Shown here: piece after piece, positions 33,113 to 59,900 of the stretch | Numbering within the stretch: position 1 is the first letter of the stretch | Layout: the number at the start of each line of letters is the position of its first letter | Source: Apostichopus japonicus | Lineage: Eukaryota; Echinodermata; Holothuroidea; Aspidochirotida; Stichopodidae | Assembly: GCF_037975245.1 (NCBI RefSeq) | Contig: NC_092565.1 | Span: forward strand, 14,785,499-14,849,498 | Reading direction: 5' to 3' | DNA: 64,000 nt | Translations under genes and position numbers: made by a program | The notes under the pieces: generated by a model | Told to the model about the DNA's origin: nothing | The model's database searches: none | What the model saw: the letters and a program-made list of their open reading frames with translations, nothing else

Positions 33113-33212
33113 TCTGGAGAAACTTCGTTTCTTATATTTATACTTCCACTCCCTCTAGAGAGTAGAAAAGTAAAAGGCTCTGCCTGGACATGAACAGCAG
33201 ACATGGAGCTTG

Positions 33213-34092
33213 TCTGGGAATCGAACCGGAGACATGGAGTTTGTCTGTCTCTCTCCAGTCCAGAGCACTACCAACTGCGCCACTAGAACTGTTGAGAATT
33301 AATGCTCGTTTCTAATATTTAAACTTCAAAGTCCAGAATGGAATCAGTAAAAGAGCAAAAATATAAAATGCTCTTTCTGGGGTTCGAACCGGAGACATGG
33401 AGTTTGTCTGTCTCTCCAGTCCAGAGCACTACCAACTGCGCCACTAGAACTGTTGAGAATTAATGCTCGTTTCTAATATTTAAACTTCAAAGTCCAGAAA
33501 GGAATCAGTAAAAGAGAAAAAATATAAAATGCTCTGTCTGGGTTTCGAACCAGAGACATGGAGTTTGTCTGTCTCTCCAGTCCAGAGCACTACCAACTGC
33601 GCCACTAGAACTGTTGAGAATTAATGCTCGTTTCTAATATTTAAACTTCAAAGTCCAGAAAGGAATCAGTAAAAGAGCAAAAAATCAAAATGCTCTGACT
33701 GGGGATCGAACCAGAGACAGAGAGTTTGTCTGTCTCTCTCTACAGAGCACTACCAACTGCGCTACTAGAACTGTTGAGAATATGCTGGTTTCTAATATTT
33801 AAACTTCAAAGTTCAGAATGGAATCAGTAAAAGAGTAAAAGTATAAAATGCTCTGTCTGTGGTTCGAACCGGAGACATGGAGTTTGTCTGTCTCTCCAGT
33901 CCAGAGCACTACCAACTGCGCCACTAGAACTGTTGAGAATTAATGCTCGTTTCTAATATTTAAACTTCAAAGTCCAGAATGGAAGAAGAAAAAGAACAGA
34001 AAAGCAAAATGCTCTGTCTGGGGATCGAACCGGAGACATGGAGTTTGTCTGTGTCTCTCCAGTCCAGAGCACTACCAACTGCGCCACTAGAA
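33213..34092 (-). repeat. Tandem array of six tRNA-Ser-like units, 160-bp period
   Basis: Units (- strand) at 33213-33289, 33371-33450, 33531-33610, 33692-33771, 33851-33930 and 34011-34092. Each has A box TGGCGCAGTTGG, then an AGACA...TGTCT pair like a class II variable arm, then B box GGTTCGAACCC or variants. Linkers of about 80 bp are also conserved. Acceptor stems pair only partly, so these look like tRNA-derived repeats rather than working tRNA genes. Confidence 0.8.
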
Positions 34093-34114
34093 CTGTTGAG
34101 AATTATTGCTCGTG

Positions 34115-34868
34115 TCTACTTAAAGAGAGGTTTTGAGAGCACCAACAAAGGTGTGAACATATATTATTTTTAAACCCCCCTTTTCAATGGGGTTAAACAT
34201 AGTAAGTCTCCTTACTTTATCAGTTTTCCCGTTCGAAATAAATCAAAATAGTACTTTGGATCTTATCTGTAAAATCTTTTGGAGGGCTAGGCAGATTCCT
34301 TTGGGACCACGTATCTCCCGAACGGAAGCAGATATGGACCTGGGAGATGCAAATTTGGGCTCCTGAGCATCGGTTAACCCATGTTACGTCATTTGGGCGA
34401 AATCGATTTTGGGTCGATTTTTTGTCAGTTTTGGCAAAAACTGCAAATCAGGTTTTTTGCCCCCACGCCCCCACACAACACCCAATTCCAAATTAAACTT
34501 CAGATTCGTAATCAGCGTGTCGCGAACTACCAGAAAAGATACACATTGATCGCTTTTGCGACAAAAAGTTTTTTCACCTCAAAAAAAAGTACGACCGAAA
34601 AACTTTTACGACGAACAAAGGATTAAAACCTTTTGTTGTCCCTAAAAGTTTTTCGTTTTTCTATTGTTCCTCTGGAGTTGCAAACTGAGCGAAAGAATTG
34701 TCATAAGAGTGCGCTCGACGTATCTTGCCAGTGATACGTGATTTCAAAGCAGTCAAATCGGACCTTTGTTTGTCATCTTGAGTTTTATCTTGACATTTAT
34801 AAATAAATGGGTCAGTTTTGGCAAAAACTGCAAGGTATACGTACCCATTACGGTTTTTTATGGTATTA
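34115..34868. other. No supported gene
   Basis: TCAGTTTTGGCAAAAACTGC occurs at about 34426 and again at about 34811, a short palindromic direct repeat. Nothing else recognised. Confidence 0.5.
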
Positions 34869-38980: not shown

Positions 38981-41900
38981 CTGTGAACAAAGACAAAAGT
39001 AAAAAAGGCTATTCTTAGTTCACAGAACCAGGGAGAGATGTACCTTAGTCAGGCTGCCCGTGTATTGAATCAGGTATAGGACAATACTGTAGTTCACAGA
39101 ACCAGGGAGAGATATGCCTTAGTCAGGCTGCTTGTGTATTGAATCAGGTATAGGACAATACTGTAGTTCACAGAACCAGGGAGAGATATGCCTTAGTCAG
39201 GCTGCTTGTGTATTGAATCAGGTATAGGACAATACTGTAGTTCACAGAACCAGGGAGAGATATGCCTTAGTCAGGCTGCTTGTGTATTGAATCAGGTATT
39301 GGAAAATACTGCAGTACACCAAACCAGGGAGAGATATACCTTACTCAGGCTGCCTGTGTATTGAATCAGGTATTGGACAATACTGTAGTTCACAGAACCA
39401 GGGAGAGATATGCCTTAGTCAGGCTGCTTGTGTATTGAATCAGGTATAGGACAATACTGTAGTTCACAGAACCAGGGAGAGATATACCTTATAATCAGGA
39501 TGCCAAATCAGCAACTCAACATATTTTAGTTCAAGCCAAGTTCTAAATATTATGCTTTATTAGGCAAGTGTGCAGCAGTTTCTACAGTGGAGGACCAATT
39601 GTAGAGATGATTCTAGATTGATGAAGTAAAATTAGACAAGAGATATATCTTTCTTACTCCTGTGGTTGAGCCCTGAATGGTGCTGGCATCTTTAGACCTT
39701 CGTATGTACTGACTGATCGCATTCCTGACCTGAGAAGATATAATGGTATACCAATATAATATTTCCTTTCATCCAATTGATGTGTTTACTATTAGAAGCC
39801 GATTGTTATCCAGAATCTAACCTTTTTTTCCATAAGTGATTTAATACTGCTCTCATCTAACCATGACTACCACTCGTTAACTAACTCCCTGAATTCAAAT
39901 TCATTGCACGGTAGTGAGCTCGTCAAAGCTGGGACTGGATGAGTTATATAACCAAACTCGCGAACGGATGAAATCTCTACAACTGAAATCATTCAACCAA
40001 GTTGATCAAAATAATACAAATCAATTTGTAATGACAATAAATTTAAAGTTAATAAATGTAATTGTGCCAGATGAGGGTGTGTTTGCATAAGGGAGGGGGG
40101 GGGAGAAGGGGGCAATTGACAATGCATAATCATGGACGTTAAATATGAATCTAAGAGATTGACTTTGGTCAGCTTGCAGCTTTGGTAAGGGAATGATGGC
40201 TTCTTCAAGAGTTCCTGCTTGCAGGAGGATCTTAATATATACATACAATACATACATACAGTGAAGTAGTAGTCATTTCTCTCCATCTAGTTTTCACTGC
40301 ATAACCAGATATCTCATACTTACCTCTGAGTTCATGGCACAGTAAAACAAAGCAACAAAGAGTCCCTGGGAAAAATATAAAAGGAAAGAAAAACCTGACT
40401 ATTTGCTTACAAATTCATTCCCAAACAAATCTGATGTCAGAATTCTGCAAAATATCACAGAAAGTGTCCTCTCACTTGAAACAACTCCTTGATATAGTTT
40501 TGATCAATTTGTTCTTTTTAAGATATTTTCCCCTCAGCTAGCCTAGTTATATTCCATGCCAAGTATTAAATGCAGTAATACATGGAATATTTTGCCATGT
40601 AGGGTTTCTTAGTTCGCAGGTTACCTGCGATTAATGCCTTAATGAGAAGTATCTGGGCAAGAAATTGTTCAGGACAGCGTCATATATTAGTTTGTTCTCG
40701 AATGAACCTTTATTTTGTGAACATCAAAACAGATGGCTGTCTGAGTTTGATTTGCAGAAATTTTTCTTAAAAAAGAAAATGACAGGTTTTGTTTGTCTGA
40801 GCAAATATAGAGCAAAATCCCAAATATAATCTTTTCATTTCACATGTATAAAACCAGCTGTTACAAACGACATTTCAGCTTGTCTGGGAATTTCTTTAAT
40901 ATCTTACAGGTTCTGCTCGTATAATATATGTACTTCAAATAACCACAGGCAGTCCAATTAAGCTATGGGAGAAAGTTATGGTCACAGAGCTAAACTCTTG
41001 AGATATTCTTCAAACTGTTCCGACATATTCTGCGGATGCAGCATTGATCTGCTTCCTGTTTCGTCATTTAATATCTGAATGAATGAATTAAAAAAAATGA
41101 TCTATCTTATTGTTACCTGTAATGAGTTGAGAACGTCATTAAGTATCTGCATAACACCGTTATTGCTGGCTAGAATAGACAGTAGGTGAGTACTTCCGAG
41201 TAGAGGCATCAGCAAGAGGGCGCTCCTCACTCCAGCCCTATGATACGAGGGTGAAACGAGAATCTGACAGTTAACTTAACACTGTTAACTTAACACTTTT
41301 TGTAGCGACACTAACAAAACGTCACTTGCAAGCAACAGAAAGTTAACTTTTTCAGATGGCCGCACACGGTTTGGGGCGAGTCTTCAATGCCTTTAAAGAT
41401 TAGTTTGTCAGATTTGTTGGTTTACTCTAGCAGTCACAAAGTGTGTGCTGATCGAGTCTAAGACTTACTTTACTTGAGTCACTTTCTCCGAAGATTCCTT
41501 CTCAGCCTGAAACTTGACTGCTTTGACTACCACCAGGGTGACTCGAATTAAGATGCAAAGATTTATCTGAAAGGACAAAACAAGAAAAGGAAAGGATCAG
41601 ACCGAGATTAGAAACCAATTCTGAAAGGTCACAGGAAATCTGTGGCTGCAACCAGATTCTCAACAGTGACCTCTGGATATAAGGCCAGTCACACAGAACC
41701 AAAGATAACCAAAGATAACACCCAAGTTACCAAAGATAACACTCAAGTTACCAAAGATAACATCCCAAGTTACCCAAGATAACACCCCAAGTTACCAAAG
41801 ATAACACCCCAGTTACCAAAGATAACGCCCAAGTTACCAAAGATAACACCCCAAGTTACCAAAGATAAAACCCAAGTTACCAAAGATAACACCCCAAGTT

Positions 41901-44900
41901 ACCAAAGATAACACCCCAGTTACCAAAGATAACACCCTAGTTACCAAAGATAGCACCCAAGTTACCAAAGATAACACCCCAAGTTACCAAAGATAAAACC
42001 CAAGTTACCAAAGATAACACCCCAAGTTACCAAAGATAGCACCCAAGTTACCAAAGATAACACCCCAAGTTACCAAAGATAACACCCCAAGTTACCAAAG
42101 ATAACGCCCCAGTTACCAAAGATAACACCCCAAGTTACCAAGATAACGCCCAAGTTACCAAAGATAACACCCCAAGTTACCAAAGATAAAACCCAAGTTA
42201 CCAAAGATAACACCCCAAGTTACCAAAGATAACACCCCAGTTACCAAAGATAACACCCTAGTTACCAAGATAAAACCCAAGTTACCAAAGATAACACCCC
42301 AAGTTACCAAAGATAAAACCCAAGTTACCAAAGATAACACCCCAAGTTACCAAAGATAGCACCCAAGTTACCAAAGATAACACCCCAAGTTACCAAAGAT
42401 AATACCCCAGTTACCAAAGATAACGCCCAAGTTACCAAAGATAACACCCCAAGTTACCAAAGATAAAACCCAAGTTACCAAAGATAACACCCCAAGTTAC
42501 CAAAGATAAAACCCAAGTTACCAAAGATAACACCCCAAGTTACCAAAGATAGCACCCAAGTTACCAAAGATAACACCCCAAGTTACCAAAGATAACACCC
42601 CAGTTACCAAAGATAATGCCCAAGTTACCAAAGGTAACACCTCTTTCAACCACATTTGTACTAGACAGGACCTGTAAACCAATATGGAAAGTGTTTGATA
42701 GCAACATACATTGTCAACAAACTGACTGGTGTTTTTATCATGACATGGATTAATCATGCAAAGTCAAGAAGTGAATTGATCAGTTTCTTACTGTCATTGA
42801 GAAGCATCAACATACTCTTTATTTTTCCTTTCTTAACTTAAGACAACATTGACAATCTAAAGCTGTCAGCATGAATAAAACTGGATCAGATATTTCCAAT
42901 AACTTTCTTAGTTCTGTGTCTATATTTATCTCAAAGCTCAGTCTGGTCACTGATGTGAAAGAACTTCTTACCACCACAATGATCAAGATGGGAATCACCA
43001 CAAACCAAATGTGACCTTCATCATTTGTTAAATAGCATCTGCAAGAAAAAAAGGAAAGGAATAAAAACAGTAAAAAAAAACAATAATGAAGAAATGAAAG
43101 ACAATGTTAGGGAAACAATAATTACTCTCGTGAGATGATACCGAAGGTATTATTACGACTCATTCCAGGTTGATTGCCCTTGATGGTGTGTAGAAAACAA
43201 ACTTGTCCAGAGACAACAGAAAACAACCATTAATGGTCAAATGTTTATATTTCTGAACCTGTCACACAGCTACGGAAACATTACCGTGCCGTCAATATGT
43301 AGTGATCTTTCTCTTCAGTTTTTGCTGCAAAATGGAAAATTGCCATATCTTCTGAGAAAGACATGTTGACGTCACGTTAATGTTTCCATAAATGGCAGGC
43401 TGAAATTTATGTTTTGAACTAAAGGGGCTCCCACACGGTTATAAAAAGCTTGCTAGATACCTTATCATGGTTGCAACACACTATGAAACACTCTCATACA
43501 GTAAGACAAAGCTTGCTAGATACCTTAACATGGTTGCAACACACTATGAAACACCCTCATACAGTAAGACAAAGCTTGCTAGATACCTTAACATGGTTGC
43601 AACACACTATGAAACACTCTCATACAGTAAGACAAAGCTTGCTAGATACCTTAACATGGTTGCAACACACTATGAAACACCCTCATACAGTAAGACAAAG
43701 CTTGCTAGATACCTTAACATGGTTGCAACACACTATGAAACACTCTCATACAGTAAGACAAAGCTTGCTAGATACCTTAACATGGTTGCAACACACTATG
43801 AAACACTCTCATACAGTAAGACAAAGCTTGCTAGATACCTTAACATGGTTGCAACACACTATGAAACACCCTCATACAGTAAGACAAAGCTTGCTAGATA
43901 CCTTAACATGGTTGCAACACACTATGAAACACCCTCATACAGTAAGACAAAGCTTGCTAGATACCTTAACATGGTTGCAACACACTATGAAACACTCTCA
44001 TACAGTAAGACAAAGCTTGCTAGATACCTTAACATGGTTGCAACACACTATGAAACACTCTCATACAGTAAGACAAAGCTTGCTAGATACCTTAACATGG
44101 TTGCAACACACTATGAAACACTCTCATACAGTAAGACAAAGCTTGCTAGATACCTTAACATGGTTGCAACACACTATGAAACACCCTCATACAGTAAGAC
44201 AAAGCTTGCTAGATACCTTAACATGGTTGCAACACACTATGAAACACTCTCATACAGTAAGACAAAGCTTGCTAGATACCTTAACATGGTTGCAACACAC
44301 TATGAAACAGCCTCATACAGTAAGACAAAGCTTGCTAGATACCTTAACATGGTTGCAACACACTATGAAACACTCTCATACAGTAAGACAAAGCTTGCTA
44401 GATACCTTAACATGGTTGCAACACACTATGAAACACTCTCATACAGTAAGACAAAGCTTGCTAGATACCTTAACATGGTTGCAACACACTATGAAACACT
44501 CTCATACAGTAAGACAAAGCTTGCTAGATACCTTAACATGGTTGCAACACACTATGAAACACTCTCATACAGTAAGACAAAGCTTGCTAGATACCTTAAC
44601 ATGGTTGCAACACACTATGAAACACTCTCATACAATAAGACATACTTGCTAGATACCTTGACATGGTTGCAACACACTATGAAACACCCTCATACAGTAA
44701 GACAAAGCTTGCTAGATACCTTGACATGGTTGCAACACACTATGAAACACCCTCATACAGTAAGACAAAGCTTGCTAGATACCTTGACATGGTTGCAACA
44801 CACTATGAAACACCCTCATACAGTAAGACAAACCTTGCTAGATACCTTGACATGGTTGCAACACACTATGAAACACTCTCATACAGTAAGACAAAGCTTG

Positions 44901-47900
44901 CTAGATACCTTGACATGGTTGCAACACACTATGAAACACCCTCATACAGTAAGACAAAGCTTGCTAGATACCTTGACATGGTTGCAACACACTATGAAAC
45001 ACCCTCATACAGTAAGACAAAGCTTGCTAGATACCTTGACATGGTTGCAACACACTATGAAACACTCTCATACAGTAAGACAAAGCTTGCTAGATACCTT
45101 GACATGGTTGCAACACACTATGAAACACTCTCATACAGTAAGACAAAGCTTGCTAGATACCTTAACATGGTTGCAACACACTATGAAACACCCTCATACA
45201 GTAAGACAAAGCTTGCTAGATACCTTAACATGGTTGCAACACACTATGAAACACCCTCATACAGTAAGACAAAGCTTGCTAGATACCTTAACATGGTTGC
45301 AACACACTATGAAACACTCTCATACAGTAAGACAAAGCTTGCTAGATACCTTAACATGGTTGCAACACACTATGAAACACTCTCATACAGTAAGACAAAG
45401 CTTGCTAGATACCTTAACATGGTTGCAACACACTATGAAACACTCTCATACAGTAAGACAAAGCTTGCTAGATACCTTAACATGGTTGCAACACACTATG
45501 AAACACCCTCATACAGTAAGACAAAGCTTGCTAGATACCTTAACATGGTTGCAACACACTATGAAACACTCTCATACAGTAAGACAAAGCTTGCTAGATA
45601 CCTTAACATGGTTGCAACACACTATGAAACAGCCTCATACAGTAAGACAAAGCTTGCTAGATACCTTAACATGGTTGCAACACACTATGAAACACTCTCA
45701 TACAGTAAGACAAAGCTTGCTAGATACCTTAACATGGTTGCAACACACTATGAAACACTCTCATACAGTAAGACAAAGCTTGCTAGATACCTTAACATGG
45801 TTGCAACACACTATGAAACACTCTCATACAGTAAGACAAAGCTTGCTAGATACCTTAACATGGTTGCAACACACTATGAAACACTCTCATACAGTAAGAC
45901 AAAGCTTGCTAGATACCTTAACATGGTTGCAACACACTATGAAACACTCTCATACAATAAGACATACTTGCTAGATACCTTGACATGGTTGCAACACACT
46001 ATGAAACACCCTCATACAGTAAGACAAAGCTTGCTAGATACCTTGACATGGTTGCAACACACTATGAAACACCCTCATACAGTAAGACAAAGCTTGCTAG
46101 ATACCTTGACATGGTTGCAACACACTATGAAACACCCTCATACAGTAAGACAAACCTTGCTAGATACCTTGACATGGTTGCAACACACTATGAAACACTC
46201 TCATACAGTAAGACAAAGCTTGCTAGATACCTTAACATGGTTGCAACACACTATGAAACACTCTCATACAGTAAGACAAAGCTTGCTAGATACCTTAACA
46301 TGGTTGCAACACACTTTGAAACACCCTCATACAGTAAGACAAAGCTTGCTAGATACCTTAACATGGTTGCAACACACTATGAAACACTCTCATACAGTAA
46401 GACAAAGCTTGCTAGATACCTTAACATGGTTGCAACACACTATGAAACACTCTCATGCAATAAGACAAAGCTTGCTAGAATACCTCAACATGGTTGCAAC
46501 ACACTATGAAACACTCTCATATAGTAAGATATACTTGCTAGAATACCTCAACATGGTTGCAAAACACTATAAAACACTCTCATACAATAAGACATACTTG
46601 CTAGATACCTTGACATGGTTGCAACACACTATGAAACACTCTCATACAGTAAGACAAAGCTTGCTAGATACCTTAAAATGGTTGCAACACACAATGAAAT
46701 ACTTTCATACAGTTCTTTAATATATCTTTGTATCATAGTTATATATACTTGTGTAACAATGCTTGTGTAAATCCAGAGTATTCATGATTACACTGAATTT
46801 TAGTAGCAGCAAGCCATGCTACATATTGTGCCACCTTGCAGTCCGGTTGAATAAACAGCAATTTTGAATGATTTCAATCGAATATCGGTATCTCCAAAGT
46901 GACTTATTATCAGCCAAGCAATAAATACTCTTTCAATTTCTGTCTGTTGATAGGCTTTCCTCAACCTGAAGTATAAGATGCTGTTAAATGAACCAATTGA
47001 ATTACCAGTCTCAGGTGGTTGAACTTGGTTTCATTTTTGTACATTGCATACAGCTCTCCAAACCTTAATTATTGGTGACCATTTTAAAGGGTGTGAAGAC
47101 TCGCGCACAAAGAAAAGTCTGATGCCGGTAATCTGACCTAGATTCGAATGAGGTGTAACAGAAGTGTTTAACACCACCATCAATCCCAGATAATACACAC
47201 ACAGCTTGCTACCGTCGGTAATCGGGCACTAGTGTACAGTCAGAACATGCAACGGAAAGTTAACTTTTTCAGAGCGCGGCACGCGGTTTGGGGCGAGTCT
47301 TCAATGCCTTTAAATGAACAATTTGAGTACTTCTCATCATATTAACAGACATCACTCACATTTTCTTCTCTTCCGTTACTGGAGTTGTCATCATGAAAGC
47401 CAGAGCTGCTACCACAAAAATTAGAGGTAAACCTGAAAAGTTTAGAAAACAAATTTCTTTTTAATCCTACTACGCTGGTCGGGATTTGTAACATATCTCC
47501 TCTCGGTCTGTAAATCAATCAGTGCTCACTCAGAATATTTAAAATCATAGCAAGAATAGCAATTAGGAATTTTGGCACCACAAAAAAGTCAATTACTTGG
47601 CAGAAAGAATGGATCAAAACAAAATGTTTCTTAAGGTATCATGAAAACTTCTCTTTAAAATCTTAACACCATAATCACTTGGAAATCTCAAACTGGTGTG
47701 AGGTGAAATAAGAGTTGCAAGATTTCAAAAAAAAAGAAACTGCAAGTTAGGTTTGCTTCACTTCATATTCAGTATTATATTTCACTGACCAGAACCTCCC
47801 CTATCACAACACTGAGTCACCATCCTCCTCATCGAATAAATCTCATTTATTATTGGGGACCCGTTGTTCGATCTCCAATGGCAGAAGTTGATTGCTCATT

Positions 47901-50900
47901 AAACAAAAATTGCTAAAACATTTTCTGAAGTTTTACGTTGATATCGTCGTCCTCCTCATCATAATCATCATCAAATCATTTGTTGAGATTTTTTGTTTCA
48001 AATTTGGTGATATTTTGTGAATGCATCTAGCAACAGCAGAAGGAAAGATGTCGTCATGACAACTGCGCTGAAGGTGTTTTTGCTTTCTAAGTGAAGAAAA
48101 GCTTGCCATGATGCACAGACCACTAACTGAGTTCCACTACAGAGATATAGAGATCGGGTACAGACTAGTCAAGATAGGTAACATTCAATTAACCATACCT
48201 CATGTTAGGAGTAAGATATCATTGAGATTGGGTTTTCAACAATCAGTGTGGAAATGTGGAATATACCTTTTCCTAAGGTGGACTTTAAAATGAGTCAAGA
48301 ACTATGGCGGGCCATCAGTCTCAAATCATGGGGAATCGACTTCTACCGATTTAAATCGACATATACCAATTTCCTTTGACTTATACAATTTTCCAGCAGC
48401 TTAAATTGACTTCTACCGATTTAAATCATCATCACCGAAGTCTAAGGAAATTGGTATATGTCGATTTAAATCGGTATAAGTCGATTCCCCATGATTTGAG
48501 ACTGATGGCCTGCCATAAAGAACCTCCCCCTTGCATAATAATAATAATAACTAAGATTTATAATGCGCTAATTATAAACAAAATAGTTGTCAAAAGCGCC
48601 ATACATATAAATATGAATAGAAAGAAAAGCAAAAATAATAATGCAACAATGAAATATAATTACAAATCAAATTGAAAAATGTTTAGCATAGAGGTAAGTT
48701 TTTAGTTTAGATTTGAAAAGTGATTTATTAGGTATACATTTTAAATGGTTTGGGAGGGAATTCCACAATTTGGGACCAGAAACTGAAAAAGCACGGTTGG
48801 CATAAGTAACCCCATTGGTCCGAGGTTCAAGGAGGGTAATAAATTTTGATTGACGGGTGGCACGCTTGTATTGCTTTACTATTAGAAGTTCTGAAAGGTA
48901 GTTTAGAGATAAATGGTTATAAATACAATTGTGGATTAAAATAAGGACTTTGAAATGTATACATCAATAAAAACTCAGTTTTAGAAGGATTAAGTTTCAG
49001 TTTGTTAAGTTTCATCCAATTGTTGATTTCAGAAAAGGTGCTCTGAATTAAATTGACTTTAGTTTGGATATCAGTTGGGTCATCTAGGTTAACTTTAGTC
49101 CATATCTGCGTATCATCTGCATACATGTGAAAAGAGATGTTAGACTTACTAGCTAATAAATTATACATAAGTATAAATTATACATAAGGCATACTTTTTA
49201 GTGTTGTAGTAGTAGTAAGTTATAATTTTAGTTGTGTGTGTAAAATAAGTCAATCCATTTCTTGTAAATATTTGCAATGGTTTGAAAAGCTGTTACTTGA
49301 GATCGGAACATATTTTCCAATTTAAATTTTAAGTTGCCTTGACACTCTGACTTCTTAGTGGATACAGACATGTTTGTTTTCACTGGATGTGCTATACTTG
49401 ATCATGCTATTCATAAGTATATTTCTATTACAAAAACTACATTATTAATTATTCCATCTTTATCAGTATAGTTAATATATGATTATAGTTTTCAAAAAAC
49501 TAAGTATAAAGAACGTCGCTTTTCATGAGCAAGATCTCTTAAATTTGATGGTTGCCTAAATAAATTGCTCACCCTGGAATGAAATGTTAGTACTCATTGA
49601 AGAAACACATCAGAAAAACACAACTATATATATGGCCAGGACAGGAAGGAATTGAATTGGTGGTGGTGTATGCGGGAAGGAGGGAGGGAGGGTTAGTTTC
49701 AGTTGTCAGTAGAGGGTGATAAGAAGTATTCAAAGATATTTAAGGACAAGACCCTGGAAGGAAAGTGTAATTAATTAACAATCTTTTTGAGCAAGTTTAA
49801 ATTACGCACAACTGGTTTGAGAACTTACCCCAGCCAATGGCAAAGTAAACCCAGGTATGTTTCTTCTCAGATTCAAAGACGGTGATAATCTGCCGGTACA
49901 GATGGACACCCTCAGCCAACATCCAACAGAATGAAGACAAAAACAAATACTGCAGCAGGTATGTGGTAAATTGGCACAGCAGCTACGGGAAGAAAGATCG
50001 AGAATGTAACCATCAGGTACATGGTAAATCGGGCAAAGCATCTACGGGGAGAAAGATCAACAAGGTTAAACCATCAGGTACATGGTAAATCGGGCAAAGC
50101 AGTTACGGGGAGAAAGATCAACAAGGTTAAACCATCAGGTACATGGTAAATCGGGCAAAGCAGTTACGGGGAGAAAGATCAACAAGGTTAAACCATCAGG
50201 TACATGGTAAATCGGGCGAAGCAGTTACGGGGAGAAAGATCAACAAGGTTAAACCATCAGGTACATGGTAAATCGGGCGAAGCAGTTACGGGGAGAAAGA
50301 TCAACAAGGTTAAACCATCAGGTACATGGTAAATCGGGCGAAGCAGTTACGGGGAGAAAGATCAACAAGGTTAAACCATCAGGTACATGGTAAATCGGGC
50401 GAAGCAGTTACGGGGAGAAAGATCAACAAGGTTAAACCATCAGGTACATGGTAAATCGGGCGAAGCAGTTACGGGGAGAAAGATCAACAAGGTTAAACCA
50501 TCAGGTACATGGTAAATCGGGCGAAGCAGTTACGGGGAGAAAGATCAACAAGGTTAAACCATCAGGTACATGGTAAATCGGGCGAAGCAGTTACGGGGAG
50601 AAAGATCAACAAGGTTAAACCATCAGGTACATGGTAAATCGGGCGAAGCAGTTACGGGGAGAAAGATCAACAAGGTTAAACCATCAGGTACATGGTAAAT
50701 CGGGCGAAGCAGTTACGGGGAGAAAGATCAACAAGGTTAAACCATCAGGTACATGGTAAATCGGGCGAAGCAGTTACGGGGAGAAAGATCAACAAGGTTA
50801 AACCATCAGGTACATGGTAAATCGGGCGAAGCAGTTACGGGGAGAAAGATCAACAAGGTTAAACCATCAGGTACATGGTAAATCGGGCAAAGCAGTTACG

Positions 50901-53900
50901 GGGAGAAAGATCAACAAGGTTAAACCATCAGGTACATGGTAAATCGGGCAAAGCAGTTACGGGGAGAAAGATCAACAAGGTTAAACCATCAGGTACATGG
51001 TAAATCGGGCAAAGCAGTTACGGGGAGAAAGATCAACAAGGTTAAACCATCAGGTACATGGTAAATCGGGCAAAGCAGTTACGGGGAGAAAGATCAACAA
51101 GGTTAAACCATCAGGTACATGGTAAATCGGGCAAAGCAGTTACTGGGAGAAAGATCAACAAGGTTAAACCATCAGGTACATGGTAAATCGGGCAAAGCAG
51201 TTACGGGGAGAAAGATCAACAAGGTTAAACCATCAGGTACATGGTAAATCGGGCAAAGCAGTTACGGGGAGAAAGATCAACAAGGTTAAACCATCAGGTA
51301 CATGGTAAATCGGGCAAAGCAGTTACGGGGAGAAAGATCAACAAGGTTAAACCATCAGGTACATGGTAAATCGGGCAAAGCAGTTACGGGGAGAAAGATC
51401 AACAAGGTTAAACCATCAGGTACATGGTAAATCGGGCGAAGCAGTTACGGGGAGAAAGATCAACAAGGTTAAACCATCAGGTACATGGTAAATCGGGCAA
51501 AGCAGTTACGGGGAAGAAAGGAAGATATATGTGAATCAGGCATAAAGTAAAAAGATTTGTGGAGAGGAAGGATCATAAGTTTTGCATCAGGTATACCGGC
51601 AAAATATTGATTTACAATGAAAATTCCAAATCAAATCACATGAAAGAGGGCTTAAGGTGCATGGATATTAAGTTCAGTTACTGTATAATGAGATAGAAAG
51701 TAAGAGTTAAGGGATGCAAGAGGCAAATGGTTAAATGAAATTAGAATCAAGGGAAGTAAATGTCCCAAGACAGATCGATGACGGATATTTTACATACATA
51801 AGTAACAGAGCCTATCACTTCAATTACTTCACCTTTGGCTCTGTTCGCTCTAATAACGAGAGGAAGACCACTGCAACCAAGAGTAGAGACACCATGAGAT
51901 TTGAATGGATTGCATACCGAGCAGAGGAGATGGTTGATCTGAAAGACGAATGAAAGTTATCATTATAGCAATCAAAAGTCTTACGTTAAATCTTGTATTA
52001 CATGTTTAGTACTGAAATCCAGTAACAATGCTTACATGACTGGACTGACTTCTGATGGTTTGGAAAAATTTCAAAATCTCAAGTGCATGTTTGGTTGTGC
52101 TATAAAGGGGCAAAGGGTCCCTTGGTCTGTGGACCAGCTGACACTTACCAATGTTTCCTGGCTGAGGTTCTGAACCCAGATGCAAATTGCCAACAACAAT
52201 AAAAACAACAAAAAACTTACATACTTTTCGATTATCAGTCATACATTAACATCTGGATTCTGGAAGGATCATAAACTTTAACAACGAAATGAAGCTGAGA
52301 TGTTTAATAAATCTAGCAGCACCGTCTGTATAATTGGCTGGCAAAAATGAATTTCCGTCTTGTAGAACCGTCTGACCCCACACAGAAATGTAACGAGCAA
52401 AATATAACAAGGTTTATACCGACTAAATACACTACAATGCCTTAAAACTGAACAGGATCTGAAATAATTCTGATATACTGTATTGCTACTTTTAATAATT
52501 AAATTAAATACATACCTGAGGACAAAGTAAATCAAAAGAGCACATACTAATGCTACAATCGATATTGATAGGCCCACTTTGGTCACTACGGATCCAATCT
52601 CATCCCATAACTAAAATTACAACAAAACAAAAAAGAAAGAAGGAAAATAAGCAAGATATAACTAATATGAATGAAATTGACAGAAATCAATTGATGCTAT
52701 AAATGGCGGACTCTCCAAGCTTTCTCTGAAAGACATGCATCATCCTCTCAAGATGGAATGTGTACCCAATGGAGGGGATTTACCCTCCACCCTTTCACCT
52801 GGGAGTCTACAAAAACTATTGCCACACTGCCTCCTTTATAAACTCCTGGGCAGCCCCATGATTTACTTTGATACAAGATCAGATACATTCAACCTCTGAC
52901 ATTTGCTATAAATATTGAGGAATTTTACTTAATTATTTGCAAATGCATTTGTGTTTATACCATAAAGAAAATGATATTACTTTCTCCTCCTGCTTTCCCC
53001 CGTCCCCCAACAGATGCCAACTATTCTATTAATCAACAGATTTTCAAAATATACTGTGCTGGTAATTATTGGCTCCATTAATGAAATGTTCAAATACTAC
53101 ATGTCACTTCATGCATACATGATAATATATGCTTGTAATGTCATGCACCCTTGATGTCAGAATGCATGTCAATGTCTGGTTTGATTGATGTCATTATACA
53201 TGGAATGTCATGCATTCATGATGTCAGAATGTATGTCATGCACAAACTTGATATCATTTTACATAACATGTCATGCATGTGTGATATAAAGACAGATATT
53301 TCCTGTATGCATGATGTCAGAATGCATGACATGTCCTGTTAGCATGATGTCAGAATGTTTGTCAGGTCCTTTATGCATGATTTAATGATACATGCCATGT
53401 TCTGTATGCATGATATCAGAATGCATGTCATGTCCTGTATGCATGATGTCAGAATGCATGCCATGTCCTGTATGCATGATGCCAGAATGCATGCCATGTC
53501 CTGTATGCATGATGTCAGAATGTTTTTCATGTCCTGTATGCATGATGTAATTATACATGCCATGTCCTGTATGCATGATGTCAGAATGCATATCATGTCC
53601 TGTATGCATGATGTCAGAATGTTTGTCAGGTCCTTTATGCATGATTTAATGATACATGCCATGTCCTGTATGCATGATGTCAGAATGCATGTCATGTCCT
53701 GTATGCATGATGTCAGAATGCATGCCATGTCCTGTATGCATGATGCCAGAATGCATGCCATGTCCTGTATGCATGATGTCAGAATGTTTTTCATGTCCTG
53801 TATGCATGATGTAATGATACATGCCATGTCCTGTATGCATGATGTCAGAATGCATGTCATGTCCTGTATGCATGATGTCAGAATGCATGTCATGTCCTGT

Positions 53901-56900
53901 ATGCATGATGTCAGAATGTTTGTCAGGTCCTTTATGCATGATTTAATGATACATGCCATGTCCTGTATGAATGATGTCAGAATGCATGTCATGTCCTGTA
54001 TACATGCATGATGTCAGAATGCTTGACATGTCCTGTATATGTATGACGTAATGATGCATATCATGTCTTAAATCTGAGCATAAAGTCACTGACACATCTA
54101 CTGTAACAGCTGTTGTTTGTGGGTATGAATGTCCAGGAACCTGCAAACTTACAGTTGGTGGACGTGGTGTACCAATACTCAAGAGAACCGAAAAGCTGGT
54201 TGTATGAGTACATGAGCACTTTGCGACTAATTCTGTAGCATTATCGTCAATTTTGCAGCCATCAAACTTCCAAAATATAGTGTCACTGTAAAAGGAAGAA
54301 TAAAATGTATTATTTACTCAAAGTAACAAATAATAGTCCTCATAGCAGTAGATTTAAACTTCTTACTTTATAGCTGGTACGGCTGCTAAACTTTCAAAAA
54401 ACAAGCTTCAATCAAACAATTTTTTGAACAGCAAAGAAAGGTTTTTGTTATATTCTTTACCAATTTTCTTCTTTCTTTCTCTATATCATTGGGATGAGCT
54501 TAAGGTTAAGGTTAAGGTGGTAACACTTGGTAAAGCGCACATTACTGTTAAAACACTCAATGGCGCTGAACAACAATACAATTATAAAAACGATTTCTTA
54601 AATAAGTGAGTCTTCAAAGCACATTTGTCATAATTCTTAAAACTTCATAAAGTAAAATTATCATACCAAAATAAATCTATATACTTGCTTGAGCTACTTC
54701 CTTCTTCCCCCCCAAAAAAGTTATAAAATCATATCAATTTTATTAAAATCATGTAATATGGTTCATATCGCAAACCAATCAACTTCCTATGAAGTTGATA
54801 AATTTCAGTTTTTTCAAATTTTAGCAACACAAAATAACAACAAAACCTGAATGTCAAATTGTCTAATCCAATGAATGAACACCTCCTATATCCTTCGTAT
54901 TGTCTTTTGTTTCTTTTGAAGATGAAAATATTAGACACACTTTCGATGAATATAAAATTCAGTCTACCCAGAAAATGACTGAAGAGATATACAGCAAATG
55001 AAATTTCAAACTTTTTCTGGAACTTTCTGAAACAATGTATGTAACCAGATTCCACCACCCCCCCTGCCCCCAGCATATCTTACAATGCTAACATATTAAC
55101 ATAACCTTACTTTATGGTCTTGCATTTTTTTTTCATTATGTAAAAGTATCTTCTGTTGGCTGAAGTTGTTTATGCGGCAACATTCATGTAAATAAGGCAA
55201 ACACCTCATCCTCATCGCATTTTGAATTGTGGAGATATGAATTATTCAAATTTTGAAGATATTTTGTAAATATGCATCTGGCAAACAGCAGATGAAAGAT
55301 GTCATCAGGGTGCCTCAGCTGATTATGTCTTTGTTTCCTTTATAAATATTTCAATAATTCATCCACAGAAAATGATAGTGACGAGGAGTATTTCTGTAAA
55401 CAGATTTTTGATGAAATTCATAATACAGAGAACTGCATTGACAGCTAGCTAGGCAACCATTGCCAAATGTGTCAGGGATCAAGGATAAGTCAACAAGACA
55501 ATCATAATCACCTATTAAATAAGTAAAGCTTTTGAAGAGCATTTGCCCAGATGATATCACAGACCTCCCACTGTGACCCAACTTCCTTGAGCAGCTGAAA
55601 GTTTAGTCTTTCAAAATAGGTTATAATTCAAACATATCTTGAGTTAAGGACCAGAAATTGAGATAGGGTTTTTAACTAGCAGTTTGAATTATTTTTTCTT
55701 TTTGTTTGAACACTGTTTTGCCAACAGAATATCCCTTTATCAGCTTCTTACATTTTAACAAAGTGTAAAGTACTTGACAATAATAATTATTTGCTATAAA
55801 TCAATGATGATGGTTAACTGGGCAAGAAATAAAAGTTTAAATTAGCACTCACTTCCAGTCAGTGTCCTCTTCTTCAAAATAAGCACAGTGTGGCTCCTGG
55901 TACTCGGAGAGATTCTGTGGCGTTCATGAGAGGATAGATAAATTGATACCAATTGATCCATGTGAAGAGATTACAGGGCAAGTCTGTTTGTCCCCTAGGA
56001 GGGGATTATACGGACAATAACACACAATACAATATGATAACAGGGGAAGGCCTAGTCCTGTTTGACCACTAGGAGGGGACTCTACACACAATAACACACA
56101 ATACAATATAATAACAGGGGTATAGCCCTGTTTGACCACTAGGAGGGGACTCTACAGAAAATAACATACTCTACAATATAATAATCGGGTAGCCCTGTTT
56201 GTCCCCTATGATGGGGCTCTACAGAAAATAACACACAATACAATATAATAATAGGGGTAGCCCTGTTTGACCACTAGGAGGAGACTCTACACACAATAAC
56301 ACACAATACAATATAATAATAGGGGTAGCCCTGTTTCAAGACCGCTAGGAAGGGACTCACAGCATAACATGATAATAGGGGTAGGCCTATTCCCTGTTTG
56401 ACCACTAGAAGGGGACTCTACAGAGAATGGCACAATGTAAAAAGATAAAAGTTTGTCCCCTTTACAGAGAATTACACTAAAATAAATATCGTGCATAAAA
56501 GCAACTTACTTTCCACATTCTCTTAATACTCAGGCTCTTTAGTGGATAAGCAGTTTGCTAACAGTTTTATTTTATTTTGAAATAAATATCACCGAACACT
56601 TTGTGATAATTCCACTTCAAACGCAGTCATTTATTATTCTGCTTGTTATTCTTACGTGCTGTGAGTCAATGGATTTAAGTGCTGTGAGTCAATGGATACA
56701 CCTTGTGATGAAAAATGGTACATACAGTATACTATCACTGCTGTATTTACTGAAAAATACTCGAAGGGGCATTTCAACTTGTGATGCAGGCACCCAGACA
56801 ATTAATGTGCCTCCTTGGCAGGCAGCAGCGCCAGTAAAACATCCTTGACACACTCCTAAGCCAAGTAGAATTTCTTTTCTTACAGATAACATACATACTG

Positions 56901-59900
56901 TAGTTAGAATATTGGAACAAGACTTGTATGCAAGCATACTTACTACATCATTACTACATCCTTACTACATCCTTACTACATCCTTACTATATCATTACTA
57001 CATCATTACTACATCATTACTATATCATTACTATATCATTACTACATCATTACTTCATCCTTACTATATCATTACTACATCCTTACTATATCATTACTAT
57101 ATCATTACTTCATCCTTACTACATCCTTACTTTATCATTACTACATCATTACTACATCATTACTATATCATTACTACATCATTACTACATCCTTACTATA
57201 TCATTACTATATCATTACTTCATCCTTACTACATCCTTACTTTATCATTACTACATCATTACTACATCCATTACTATATCATTACTACATCATTACTACA
57301 TCATTACTATATCATTACTACATCATTACTATATCATTACTATATCATTACTACATCATTACTTCATCCTTACTACATCCTTACTATATCATTACTATAT
57401 CATTACTTCATCCTTACTACATCATTACTATATCATTACTTCATCCTTACTTTATCATTACTACATCATTACTACATCATTACTACAGATATCATTACTA
57501 CATCATTACTACATCATTACTATATCATTACTATATCATTACTACATCATTACTACATCCTTACTATATCATTACTACATCATTACTACATCCTTGCTAT
57601 ATCATTACTATATCATTACTTCATCCTTACTATATCATTACTACATCCTTACTATATCATTACTATATCATTACTTCATCCTTACTACATCCTTACTTTA
57701 TCATTACTACATCATTACTACATCCATTACTATATCATTACTACATCATTACTACATCATTACTATATCATTACTACATCCTTACTATATCATTACTATA
57801 TCATTACTACATCATTACTTCATCCTTACTACATCCTTACTATATCATTACTATATCATTACTTCATCCTTACTTTATCATTACTACATCATTACTACAT
57901 CATTACTATATCATTACTACATCATTACTACATCCTTACTATATCATTACTACATCATTACTACATCATTACTATATCATTACTATATCATTACTACATC
58001 ATTACTACATCCTTACTATATCATTACTACATCATTACTACATCCTTACTATATCATTACTACATCATTACTACATCCTTACTATATCATTACTATATCA
58101 TTACTACATCATTACTTAATCCTTACTATATCATTACTACATCATTACTATATCATTACTATATCATTACTACATCATTACTACATCATTACTATATCAT
58201 TACTTCATCCTTACTTTATCATTACTACATCATTACTATATCATTACTACATCATTACTACATCATTACTATATCATTACTACATCATTACTACATCCTT
58301 ACTATATCATTACTACATCCTTACTATATCATTACTACATCATTACTACATCCTTACTATATCATTACTATATCATTACTATATCATTACTTCATCCTTA
58401 CTTTATCATTACTACATCATTACTACATCATTACTATATCATTACTACATCATTACTACATCCTTACTATATCATTACTACATCATTACTACATCATTAC
58501 TATATCATTACTATATCATTACTACATCATTACTACATCCATTACTATATCATTACTATATCATTACTACATCATTACTACATCATTACTATATCATTAC
58601 TATATCATTACTATATCATTACTACATCATTACTACATCCATTACTATATCATTACTATATCATTACTATATCATTACTACATCATTACTACATCCTTAC
58701 TTCATCCTTACTATATCATTACTACATCATTAGTATATCATTACTATATCATTACTATATCATTACTATATCATTACTACATCATTACTATATCATTACT
58801 ACATCATTACTACATCATTACAATATCATTACTATATCATTACTACATCCTTTAAACCTGAGAACAAAAGCTGTTAATAGTTTGACGCATTGATTTCACA
58901 GACAATGGATGTTCAAAACCTTTAAGTATCTGCCTTTCATTAAAACTATAGCTTTTTTTGGCAGTTTCAGAATACAGATAAAAGGGACTTTTGCTTACCT
59001 TGTAAGTGGTTTTGAAGTCAAATTGTGTCAAACTAAAGATCTCATTATTCACGTAAGTGTTAATCTGTATCAGAGCACTACCAACATTATATTGAGTATC
59101 GTCGTCCTTTACCGAGACATTGGCGCCAGGCTTGTCATAGCTTTCATTTTGTTTTACAATTGTGACCACAATTACCACCGTTACATTTTCTGCATGAAAG
59201 AGATGGAAGATCCTTTGTAAATGATAAAAGTATTGAGAAGAGAGATGGGAGATATGATTGTCTTCATTGACACTTAAAATAAAGCGATACTGGAAGCTGT
59301 GAGATTTCTTGCCTAAATGCTGTATCTGGTTTAGAAACAGAACTCTTGTGTCACTCTGAGAGGACAATATGTTATGATTTAGACAGATATATGCATCCTT
59401 CATAATCTAAGAAAGGCTAAGGTGTGGAGACAAATATATAACAAGAGGTCAATCTATGGAGTTTCAGATGTCATTTGAATTGACTTACAGTATATCAGGA
59501 GTTTTTGACACACATTATTGCCATTTAGGGCCAAATTTGACCTATGACCTCAACCCTTAACAACACATAAGATTATATTTCAATCGTCCCATCATTCTTA
59601 ACATATCTTGTGGTTTAATGACAAATATTAAAATTACTCTATATTTCACTAGAAAATCAGTTTCTAATCATTTTCATCTGTGCTGGCAAACTTTTTTTAC
59701 AAACAAGTTTACAAACTTTGTTGCAGTGACAGCATTAACCTCTAAAGTTAGGCCTATCTTCCTCGTGCCATGGTGCAATTTTGCTTGACTAAACCTTTTC
59801 GGCATCTTCACTTGCCTTAAATTGTCAGGACTTTGTCACAGGTAGCTTTTAAATTGGTGGTATTCAGCACCCCTGATTCATCAGGTCAAAATTATGATAA

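What the first reader, a model, noticed from the sequence alone, without database searches (positions are those of the whole stretch)
49829..51516. A 25-unit tandem array that looks like an amplified splice acceptor of the GPCR TM3 exon
The 61-bp unit aligns with the exon H 3' splice site: polypyrimidine tract, acceptor and about 28 coding bases. Distal units carry AA where the acceptor AG stands; the unit nearest the exon keeps AG (50042-50043). Using that decoy would add 59 nt and shift the frame. The array thus holds one live acceptor, one decoy and 24 silenced copies, each keeping a polypyrimidine tract that could bind U2AF or PTB. I know of no described equivalent. The alignment is seen; the origin and any regulatory effect are inference.
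Basis: partly seen in the sequence, partly recalled or inferred. Interest (0 to 1): 0.82.

Follow-up and report, generated by a model that had tools for sequence, protein, structure and literature searches.

The report
Tandem-amplified splice acceptor ("mirage" repeat)
A stretch of what is probably sea cucumber DNA that starts an exon of a receptor gene, including the signal where the exon is joined on, has been copied about 25 times in a row into the neighbouring intron; repeats of this kind are already known from lancelets, so it is a new example of a known oddity rather than a new system.

Summary
A 61-bp unit repeated about 25 times (49955-51520) is a copy of the 3' splice site of an adhesion-GPCR TM3 exon: 30 intron bases with pyrimidine tract and acceptor, plus 30 coding bases. 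The alignment scores 58 against a maximum of 33 in 5,000 shuffles. In the 671-Mb assembly all 25 matches found to the unit core lie here. The genome is probably the sea cucumber Apostichopus japonicus. Among 58 further exon loci I saw four more boundary duplications, two acceptor and two donor. Boundaries are not hot spots: 3 of 88 exon ends against 23 of 352 background points. AA in 24 of 26 copies is best read as one G>A change later amplified. Regulation is untested. Verdict: new member of a known kind; I found no echinoderm report.

The parts
49829..49982 (-). Exon H: TM3 exon of an adhesion-type class B GPCR, 154 nt; reads LLCQFTTYLLQYLFLSSFCWMLAEGVHLY...IGW; donor GG|GTAAGT
   Evidence: PF00002; PDB phmmer best ADGRD1 8.6e-12; borders read
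49983..49984 (-). Live acceptor AG (ttcccgtag|CTG)
   Evidence: inferred from frame and homology, no RNA evidence
49955..50012 (-). Exon-side copy of the unit (58 nt) holding the live acceptor; alignment to the unit consensus runs to 49953
50013..50073 (-). Unit nearest the exon, with the decoy AG (50042-50043); its use would add 59 nt and shift the frame
50074..51476 (-). 23 full 61-nt units with AA in place of the acceptor AG (12 of one sequence, 10 of another differing by one base, 1 with CCCAG)
51143..51144 (-).
51477..51520 (-). Partial distal unit (AA acceptor), where the array meets ordinary intron
52515..52607 (-). TM1-coding stretch of the same gene, upstream of the array (stretch tested, not exact exon borders)
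   Evidence: PF00002 17.5 bits alone, below the 20.6 cut-off; TM1+candidate TM2+TM3 66.4 bits in one stretch
54183..54285 (-). GPS-motif exon of the same gene (acceptor read at 54285; 3' border not set)
   Evidence: PF01825 1.5e-05, residues 574-606 of window:54050-56000:-; acceptor read

Best explanation
This is a "mirage" minisatellite. A short tandem duplication took in the end of the intron (branch-point region, pyrimidine tract, AG) plus the first 30 nt of exon H. One copy lost its AG (G>A) and that version expanded by unequal exchange or slippage to about 25 units inside the intron. The copy joined to the exon stayed functional under coding and splicing constraint and escaped homogenisation; the unit next to it kept an AG. 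The gene most likely still splices at 49982, and the array acts mainly as intron length with some cryptic-acceptor risk. Shown: array, homology, no other copy found in the genome, similar cases elsewhere in the genome. Inferred: order of events, neutrality, splice choice.
For: Homology across the boundary far above shuffles. Exon H aligns with other class B TM3 sequences through the duplicated stretch (residues 3-52), whereas the unit has one extra base there, so it is out of frame: the exon is the source. Of 14 paralogous TM3 loci used (L010-L023 of 28 found), a plausible acceptor was picked in 12, and in 10 of these 12 it lies at the same codon as ours (my comparison of offsets with query starts), so the intron position is older than the array. 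No copy found elsewhere: 25 of 25 pattern matches and 13 of 13 matches of a 201-bp query lie here. Other exon loci of the genome: L010 donor array, 45 bp x4.2, GT kept; L077 kinesin donor, 113 bp x1.9, GT lost; L062 kinesin acceptor, 168 bp x1.9, AG kept; L013 acceptor plus about 54 exon bases copied 735 bp away, AG kept. No boundary-spanning hit in inverted orientation in 59 loci. [quoted passage not shown]
Against: No RNA evidence that 49982 is used. The mirages described in the passages I saw are all from amphioxus, so common mechanism with this genome is inference. The coding half alone does not exceed the single highest of 5,000 shuffles (30 against 31). Loss of AG in nearly all copies could reflect selection rather than one amplified change. 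L013, L077 and L062 are two-copy duplications, not long arrays, and L013's copies are not adjacent.
Confidence: 0.87

Rival explanations
1. The array is a copy-number-dependent splicing regulator: about 25 branch-point/pyrimidine-tract modules, nearly all without AG, compete for U2AF/SF1/PTB and, with the decoy AG, set how much in-frame TM3 mRNA is made.
For: The decoy unit has a yTnAy motif at -25 where the live copy has only nTnAy, though the live copy also has yTnAy at -31 and -43. Live, decoy and 51143 AG score equally (7.4 bits, 19-site model, training median 12.8). AG-free run of 1,101 bp, the longest on this strand of the window. Decoy use shifts the frame.
Against: 22 of 24 full units are one of two nearly identical sequences, so shared elements need no selection. 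13.7% of mononucleotide shuffles of the unit also lack AG, and the plus strand of the window has a longer AG-free run, 1,245 bp, in another array. Three of the four other boundary duplications keep AG/GT. Boundary duplications are no more frequent than background. The amphioxus examples are said not to disturb splicing.
Confidence: 0.07
2. Reverse origin: an older intronic minisatellite supplied the acceptor and the first 30 nt of exon H.
For: Unit and exon edge are homologous in either direction; the distal flank shares only part of the unit.
Against: The 30 nt encode the start of TM3 in frame with other class B receptors; 10 of 12 paralogs with an acceptor picked start the exon at the same codon; no other copy found in the genome.
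Confidence: 0.04
3. Assembly artefact in copy number; the array is real but its length is not.
For: Near-identical units are hard to count; only one assembly seen.
Against: Blocks of variant units and single-unit variants in order; if the genome is the one I think, it was assembled from PacBio HiFi reads (PMC10344927, passages).
Confidence: 0.05

Closest known systems
"Mirage" minisatellites of amphioxus (Adh3; globins BflGb6, BflGb9; also troponin C and PGBD5)
   Same: Tandem units spanning an exon-intron boundary next to the authentic boundary. BflGb6 has the same polarity as ours (3' end of intron plus 5' part of exon). AG/GT in many but not all units; homogenised inner units with excluded cluster boundaries (PMC3087553 and PMC3902484, passages).
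   Different: Host is not amphioxus but, it seems, an echinoderm; 26 boundary copies against 6 and 3 repeat units in the two BflGb6 haplotypes; 24 of 26 have lost AG. The original 2002 Adh3 paper was not held.
Variable internal tandem repeats of human genes in segmental duplications
   Same: Minisatellite-type repeats, some at exon-intron boundaries, that change splicing (PMC2812944, passages).
   Different: There the repeats lie in exons or at boundaries and some become novel introns with transcript support; here an intron is extended with copies of an exon edge, without transcript data.
Intron gain by tandem duplication of splice sites
   Same: Duplication carrying splice signals; proposed outcome of mirages (PMC3087553).
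   Different: No new intron or exon shown here.
Interferon-induced 6-16 (IFI6) minisatellite with repeated splice donors
   Same: Minisatellite supplying repeated splice sites (recalled from memory; one search looked for it and gave listings only, none read).
   Different: Donor, not acceptor; short unit, human (recalled).

Membership tests
Mirage minisatellite | Repeat unit spans an exon-intron boundary, with coding bases and splice signal | tested here: met
   Unit aligns over the acceptor with 30 intron and 30 exon bases
Mirage minisatellite | Array abuts the authentic boundary, in direct orientation | tested here: met
   TRF array starts at 49956, inside exon H; only direct hits at this exon
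Mirage minisatellite | Unit length in the range reported (Adh3 10-72 bp; globins 150-160 bp) | tested here: met
   61 bp; range from PMC3087553
Mirage minisatellite | Splice dinucleotide kept in some units, lost in others | tested here: met
   AG in 2 of 26 boundary copies, AA in 24
Mirage minisatellite | Inner units homogenised, edge copy diverged | tested here: met
   22 of 24 full units are one of two sequences; exon-side copy diverged
Mirage minisatellite | Normal mRNA splicing not disturbed | not testable with these tools
   No RNA data
Mirage minisatellite | Length polymorphism, somatic instability | not testable with these tools
   One assembly only
Exon with AG-exclusion zone and distant branch point (class recalled, no paper read) | Long AG-free stretch directly upstream of the used acceptor | tested here: not met
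   Decoy AG lies 59 nt upstream; the 1,101-bp AG-free run lies beyond it

The most novel reading that the evidence does not exclude
The array is a length-variable splicing rheostat: 24 AG-less branch-point/pyrimidine modules plus one decoy AG of equal local score set the share of productive receptor mRNA, so that array length, which may vary between animals or cells, tunes receptor output.
Probability: 0.07. Interest if true: 0.8.

Novelty: new member of a known kind. Interest (0 to 1): 0.37.

Why it matters
It suggests that boundary-spanning "mirage" repeats, described in the papers I saw only from amphioxus, also occur in an echinoderm and are not rare there, so they may be a general by-product of frequent local duplication in minisatellite-rich genomes. 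They give natural replicate tests of how the spliceosome chooses among near-identical acceptors, and a possible starting point for new introns and exons. If mirages do no harm, that says splice choice depends on more than local acceptor sequence.

Tried and rejected
Dispersed repeat or transposon origin: rejected, since no copy of the unit core was found elsewhere (the tool calls its counts lower bounds).

Reverse origin (repeat gave the exon edge): unlikely, because the exon edge is in frame with the family and the intron position is shared with paralogs.

Amphioxus as host: I expected it after reading the mirage passages. Rejected: contig C35 (16,099 bp) is mitochondrial (COX1). Its COX1 has AAA where I recall conserved Asn (as in GGFGNWLIP), so I read it with table 9; the code was my choice, and an open frame alone does not prove it. 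ND1 and ND2, named by eye, lie on the COX1 strand; that this order fits echinoids and holothurians is recalled. Size and contig count come close to the published Apostichopus japonicus assembly (671.64 Mb, 34 scaffolds, chromosomes 18.21-46.02 Mb; PMC10344927 passages) against 671.58 Mb in 35 contigs, the largest seen 46.04 Mb.

Exon boundaries as duplication hot spots: not supported. With 44 loci (14 TM3 paralogs, 30 kinesin; window locus and L024-L037 left out), 3 of 88 exon-match ends had a spanning direct duplicate and 0 an inverted one, against 23 direct and 3 inverted of 352 background points. One of the 3 (L071) is intronic by inspection, and L077 and L062 are not caught by this count.

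Dropped from the list of boundary duplications: L037 (E 0.9 match, whole stretch copied, probably not an exon), L071 (array begins in the intron), L061 (68% identity), L070 and L072 (weak, counted exon only); L028, L057 and L061 have short arrays 11-27 bp from the match without overlap, of which only L057 was read.

Other exons of this gene tested for local copies within 2.5 kb, with borders and the names TM5 and TM6 set by eye: GPS, TM1, TM5 and TM6 none; the C-terminal exon only a match from its upstream intron to the 74-bp array. TM6 alone reached 17.0 bits with PF00002 (cut-off 20.6), TM5 alone none; a TM2 candidate had no match alone.

A 19-site acceptor model (19 of 44 loci gave a site) is weak; equal scores mean only that it cannot separate the three AGs. 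ARAGORN found no tRNA in the window.

Full report
What is there. The window lies on contig C5 of a 671.58-Mb, 35-contig assembly. On the minus strand it holds an adhesion-type class B GPCR gene: a GPS exon near 54.2 kb (PF01825), a TM1-coding stretch near 52.6 kb, and the TM3 exon 49829-49982 (PF00002; best solved relatives ADGRD1). From inside the TM3 exon and upstream of it a 61-bp repeat runs from 49955 to about 51520. The unit holds a yTnAy motif, a pyrimidine tract, an acceptor position and 30 bases homologous to the exon start.

Is it more than chance? The exon side against the unit consensus scores 58; 5,000 dinucleotide shuffles reach at most 33, and the best other tile of the window 25. 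Taken apart, the intron half exceeds its shuffles (31 against 26), while the coding half (30) stands 5.7 standard deviations above the mean but just below the single best shuffle (31). Collinearity of both halves makes the case. In the whole genome a 22-base pattern over the boundary, with up to two mismatches, gave 25 matches, all in this array or at the exon; the reversed control pattern gave 1; the tool calls its counts lower bounds.

Copy by copy. There are 26 boundary copies: the live one (AG 49983-49984), the nearest unit with a decoy AG (50042-50043), and 24 with AA, of which 23 are full length. Among the 24 full units 12 have one sequence, 10 another that differs by one base, one has CCCAG and one is the decoy unit. 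The CCCAG unit makes a third AG at 51143. In a model from 19 acceptors of this genome's other exons the three AGs score alike (7.4 bits; training range 2.8-19.8, median 12.8). The decoy unit has a yTnAy motif at -25, the live copy nTnAy there, with yTnAy at -31 and -43. Decoy use would add 59 nt and shift the frame; an extension from 51142, entered in phase 0, would open with a stop codon (the phase rests on an unconfirmed upstream exon).

Direction of copying. The 30 exon bases encode, in frame, the start of TM3, which aligns with other receptors from residue 3 on. The unit has one extra base there. Of 14 paralogous TM3 loci used, out of 28 found besides the window's own, 12 gave a plausible acceptor and 10 of these share the codon position (comparison). 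So the exon came first. G>A first, amplification second, is inferred from the near identity of the units.

Same thing elsewhere in this genome. Of 59 exon loci (29 TM3-like, the window's included, some of them weak matches; 30 kinesin), TRF arrays overlap the exon match in L009 (the window), L010 and L077. Reading the sequences: L010 repeats the exon's 3' end and donor about four times, with GT kept; L077 doubles a kinesin exon end and donor, with GT lost in the copy; L062, from the same kinesin cluster, doubles the next exon's acceptor with AG kept; L013 has a second copy of an acceptor and about 54 exon bases 735 bp away, AG kept. A self-search found boundary-spanning hits only in direct orientation. 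Against a special process stands the background test: 3 of 88 exon ends, 23 of 352 control points with direct copies. Local duplication is common here, and exon edges are not favoured.

What it is. Tandem repeats that span an exon-intron boundary were named "mirages" in amphioxus. PMC3087553 (passages) describes them in globin genes and cites the Adh3 case; PMC3902484 (passages) adds PGBD5 and troponin C and says that the Adh and troponin C mirages do not generate aberrant mRNAs. The present array meets each structural feature that I could test. Effects on splicing and length instability could not be tested.

Host. The mitochondrial contig was read with the echinoderm code, chosen by me on recalled conserved residues, and has ND1 and ND2 (named by eye) on the COX1 strand. 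Assembly size and scaffold number come close to the 2023 assembly of the sea cucumber Apostichopus japonicus (passages). I found no printed report of mirages in an echinoderm in searches (open-licence full texts only; I saw the listings, of which only part was shown, plus passages of the papers named here). That is a limited search.

Mechanism. Most likely neutral: tandem duplication over the boundary, loss of AG in one copy, amplification of that copy within an intron that tolerates length. Splicing at 49982 is expected from frame and homology of the exon, not shown. A regulatory array is possible but has no positive evidence beyond sequence motifs that come free with the duplication.

Noticed in passing
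L010 (G000:C7:1610703-1613852), 1340-1528: Donor mirage in another class B GPCR TM3 exon: 45-bp unit x4.2 carrying exon end and GT donor, GT kept in the copies read.
   Followed up: partly
L077 and L062 (G000:C16, around 12.357-12.359 Mb): Two boundary duplications in one kinesin cluster: a donor copy (GT lost) and an acceptor copy of the next exon (AG kept).
   Followed up: partly
L013, 862-976 and 1597-1710: Acceptor plus about 54 exon bases of a TM3 exon copied 735 bp away into the downstream intron, AG kept; a possible nascent alternative exon edge.
   Followed up: partly
39016-39491: 74-bp array (6.4 copies) ends about 35 bp upstream of the acceptor of the gene's C-terminal exon (38980, by eye); homology does not reach the exon.
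   Followed up: partly
43445-46713; 56940-58849; 53129-54038; 1772-2739: Window is very rich in minisatellites, e.g. 63 bp x52, 11 bp x173, 33-bp and 29-bp arrays.
   Followed up: no
48917-49177, minus strand: Fragment of a reverse transcriptase (RVT_1, 1e-4, below Pfam's cut-off) in the intron downstream of exon H.
   Followed up: no
33211-34118: 161-bp array whose unit seems to carry tRNA-like A- and B-box sequence (by eye, motifs recalled); ARAGORN calls no tRNA.
   Followed up: partly
52100-52260, minus strand: The exon encoding TM2 of this receptor is not clear; the candidate reading lacks the start I recall for TM2 and has no Pfam match alone.
   Followed up: partly
G000:C29, about 14.7-31.2 kb: Further COX1 matches in pieces with in-frame TGA codons on another contig: nuclear copy of mitochondrial DNA or another mitochondrial haplotype.
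   Followed up: no
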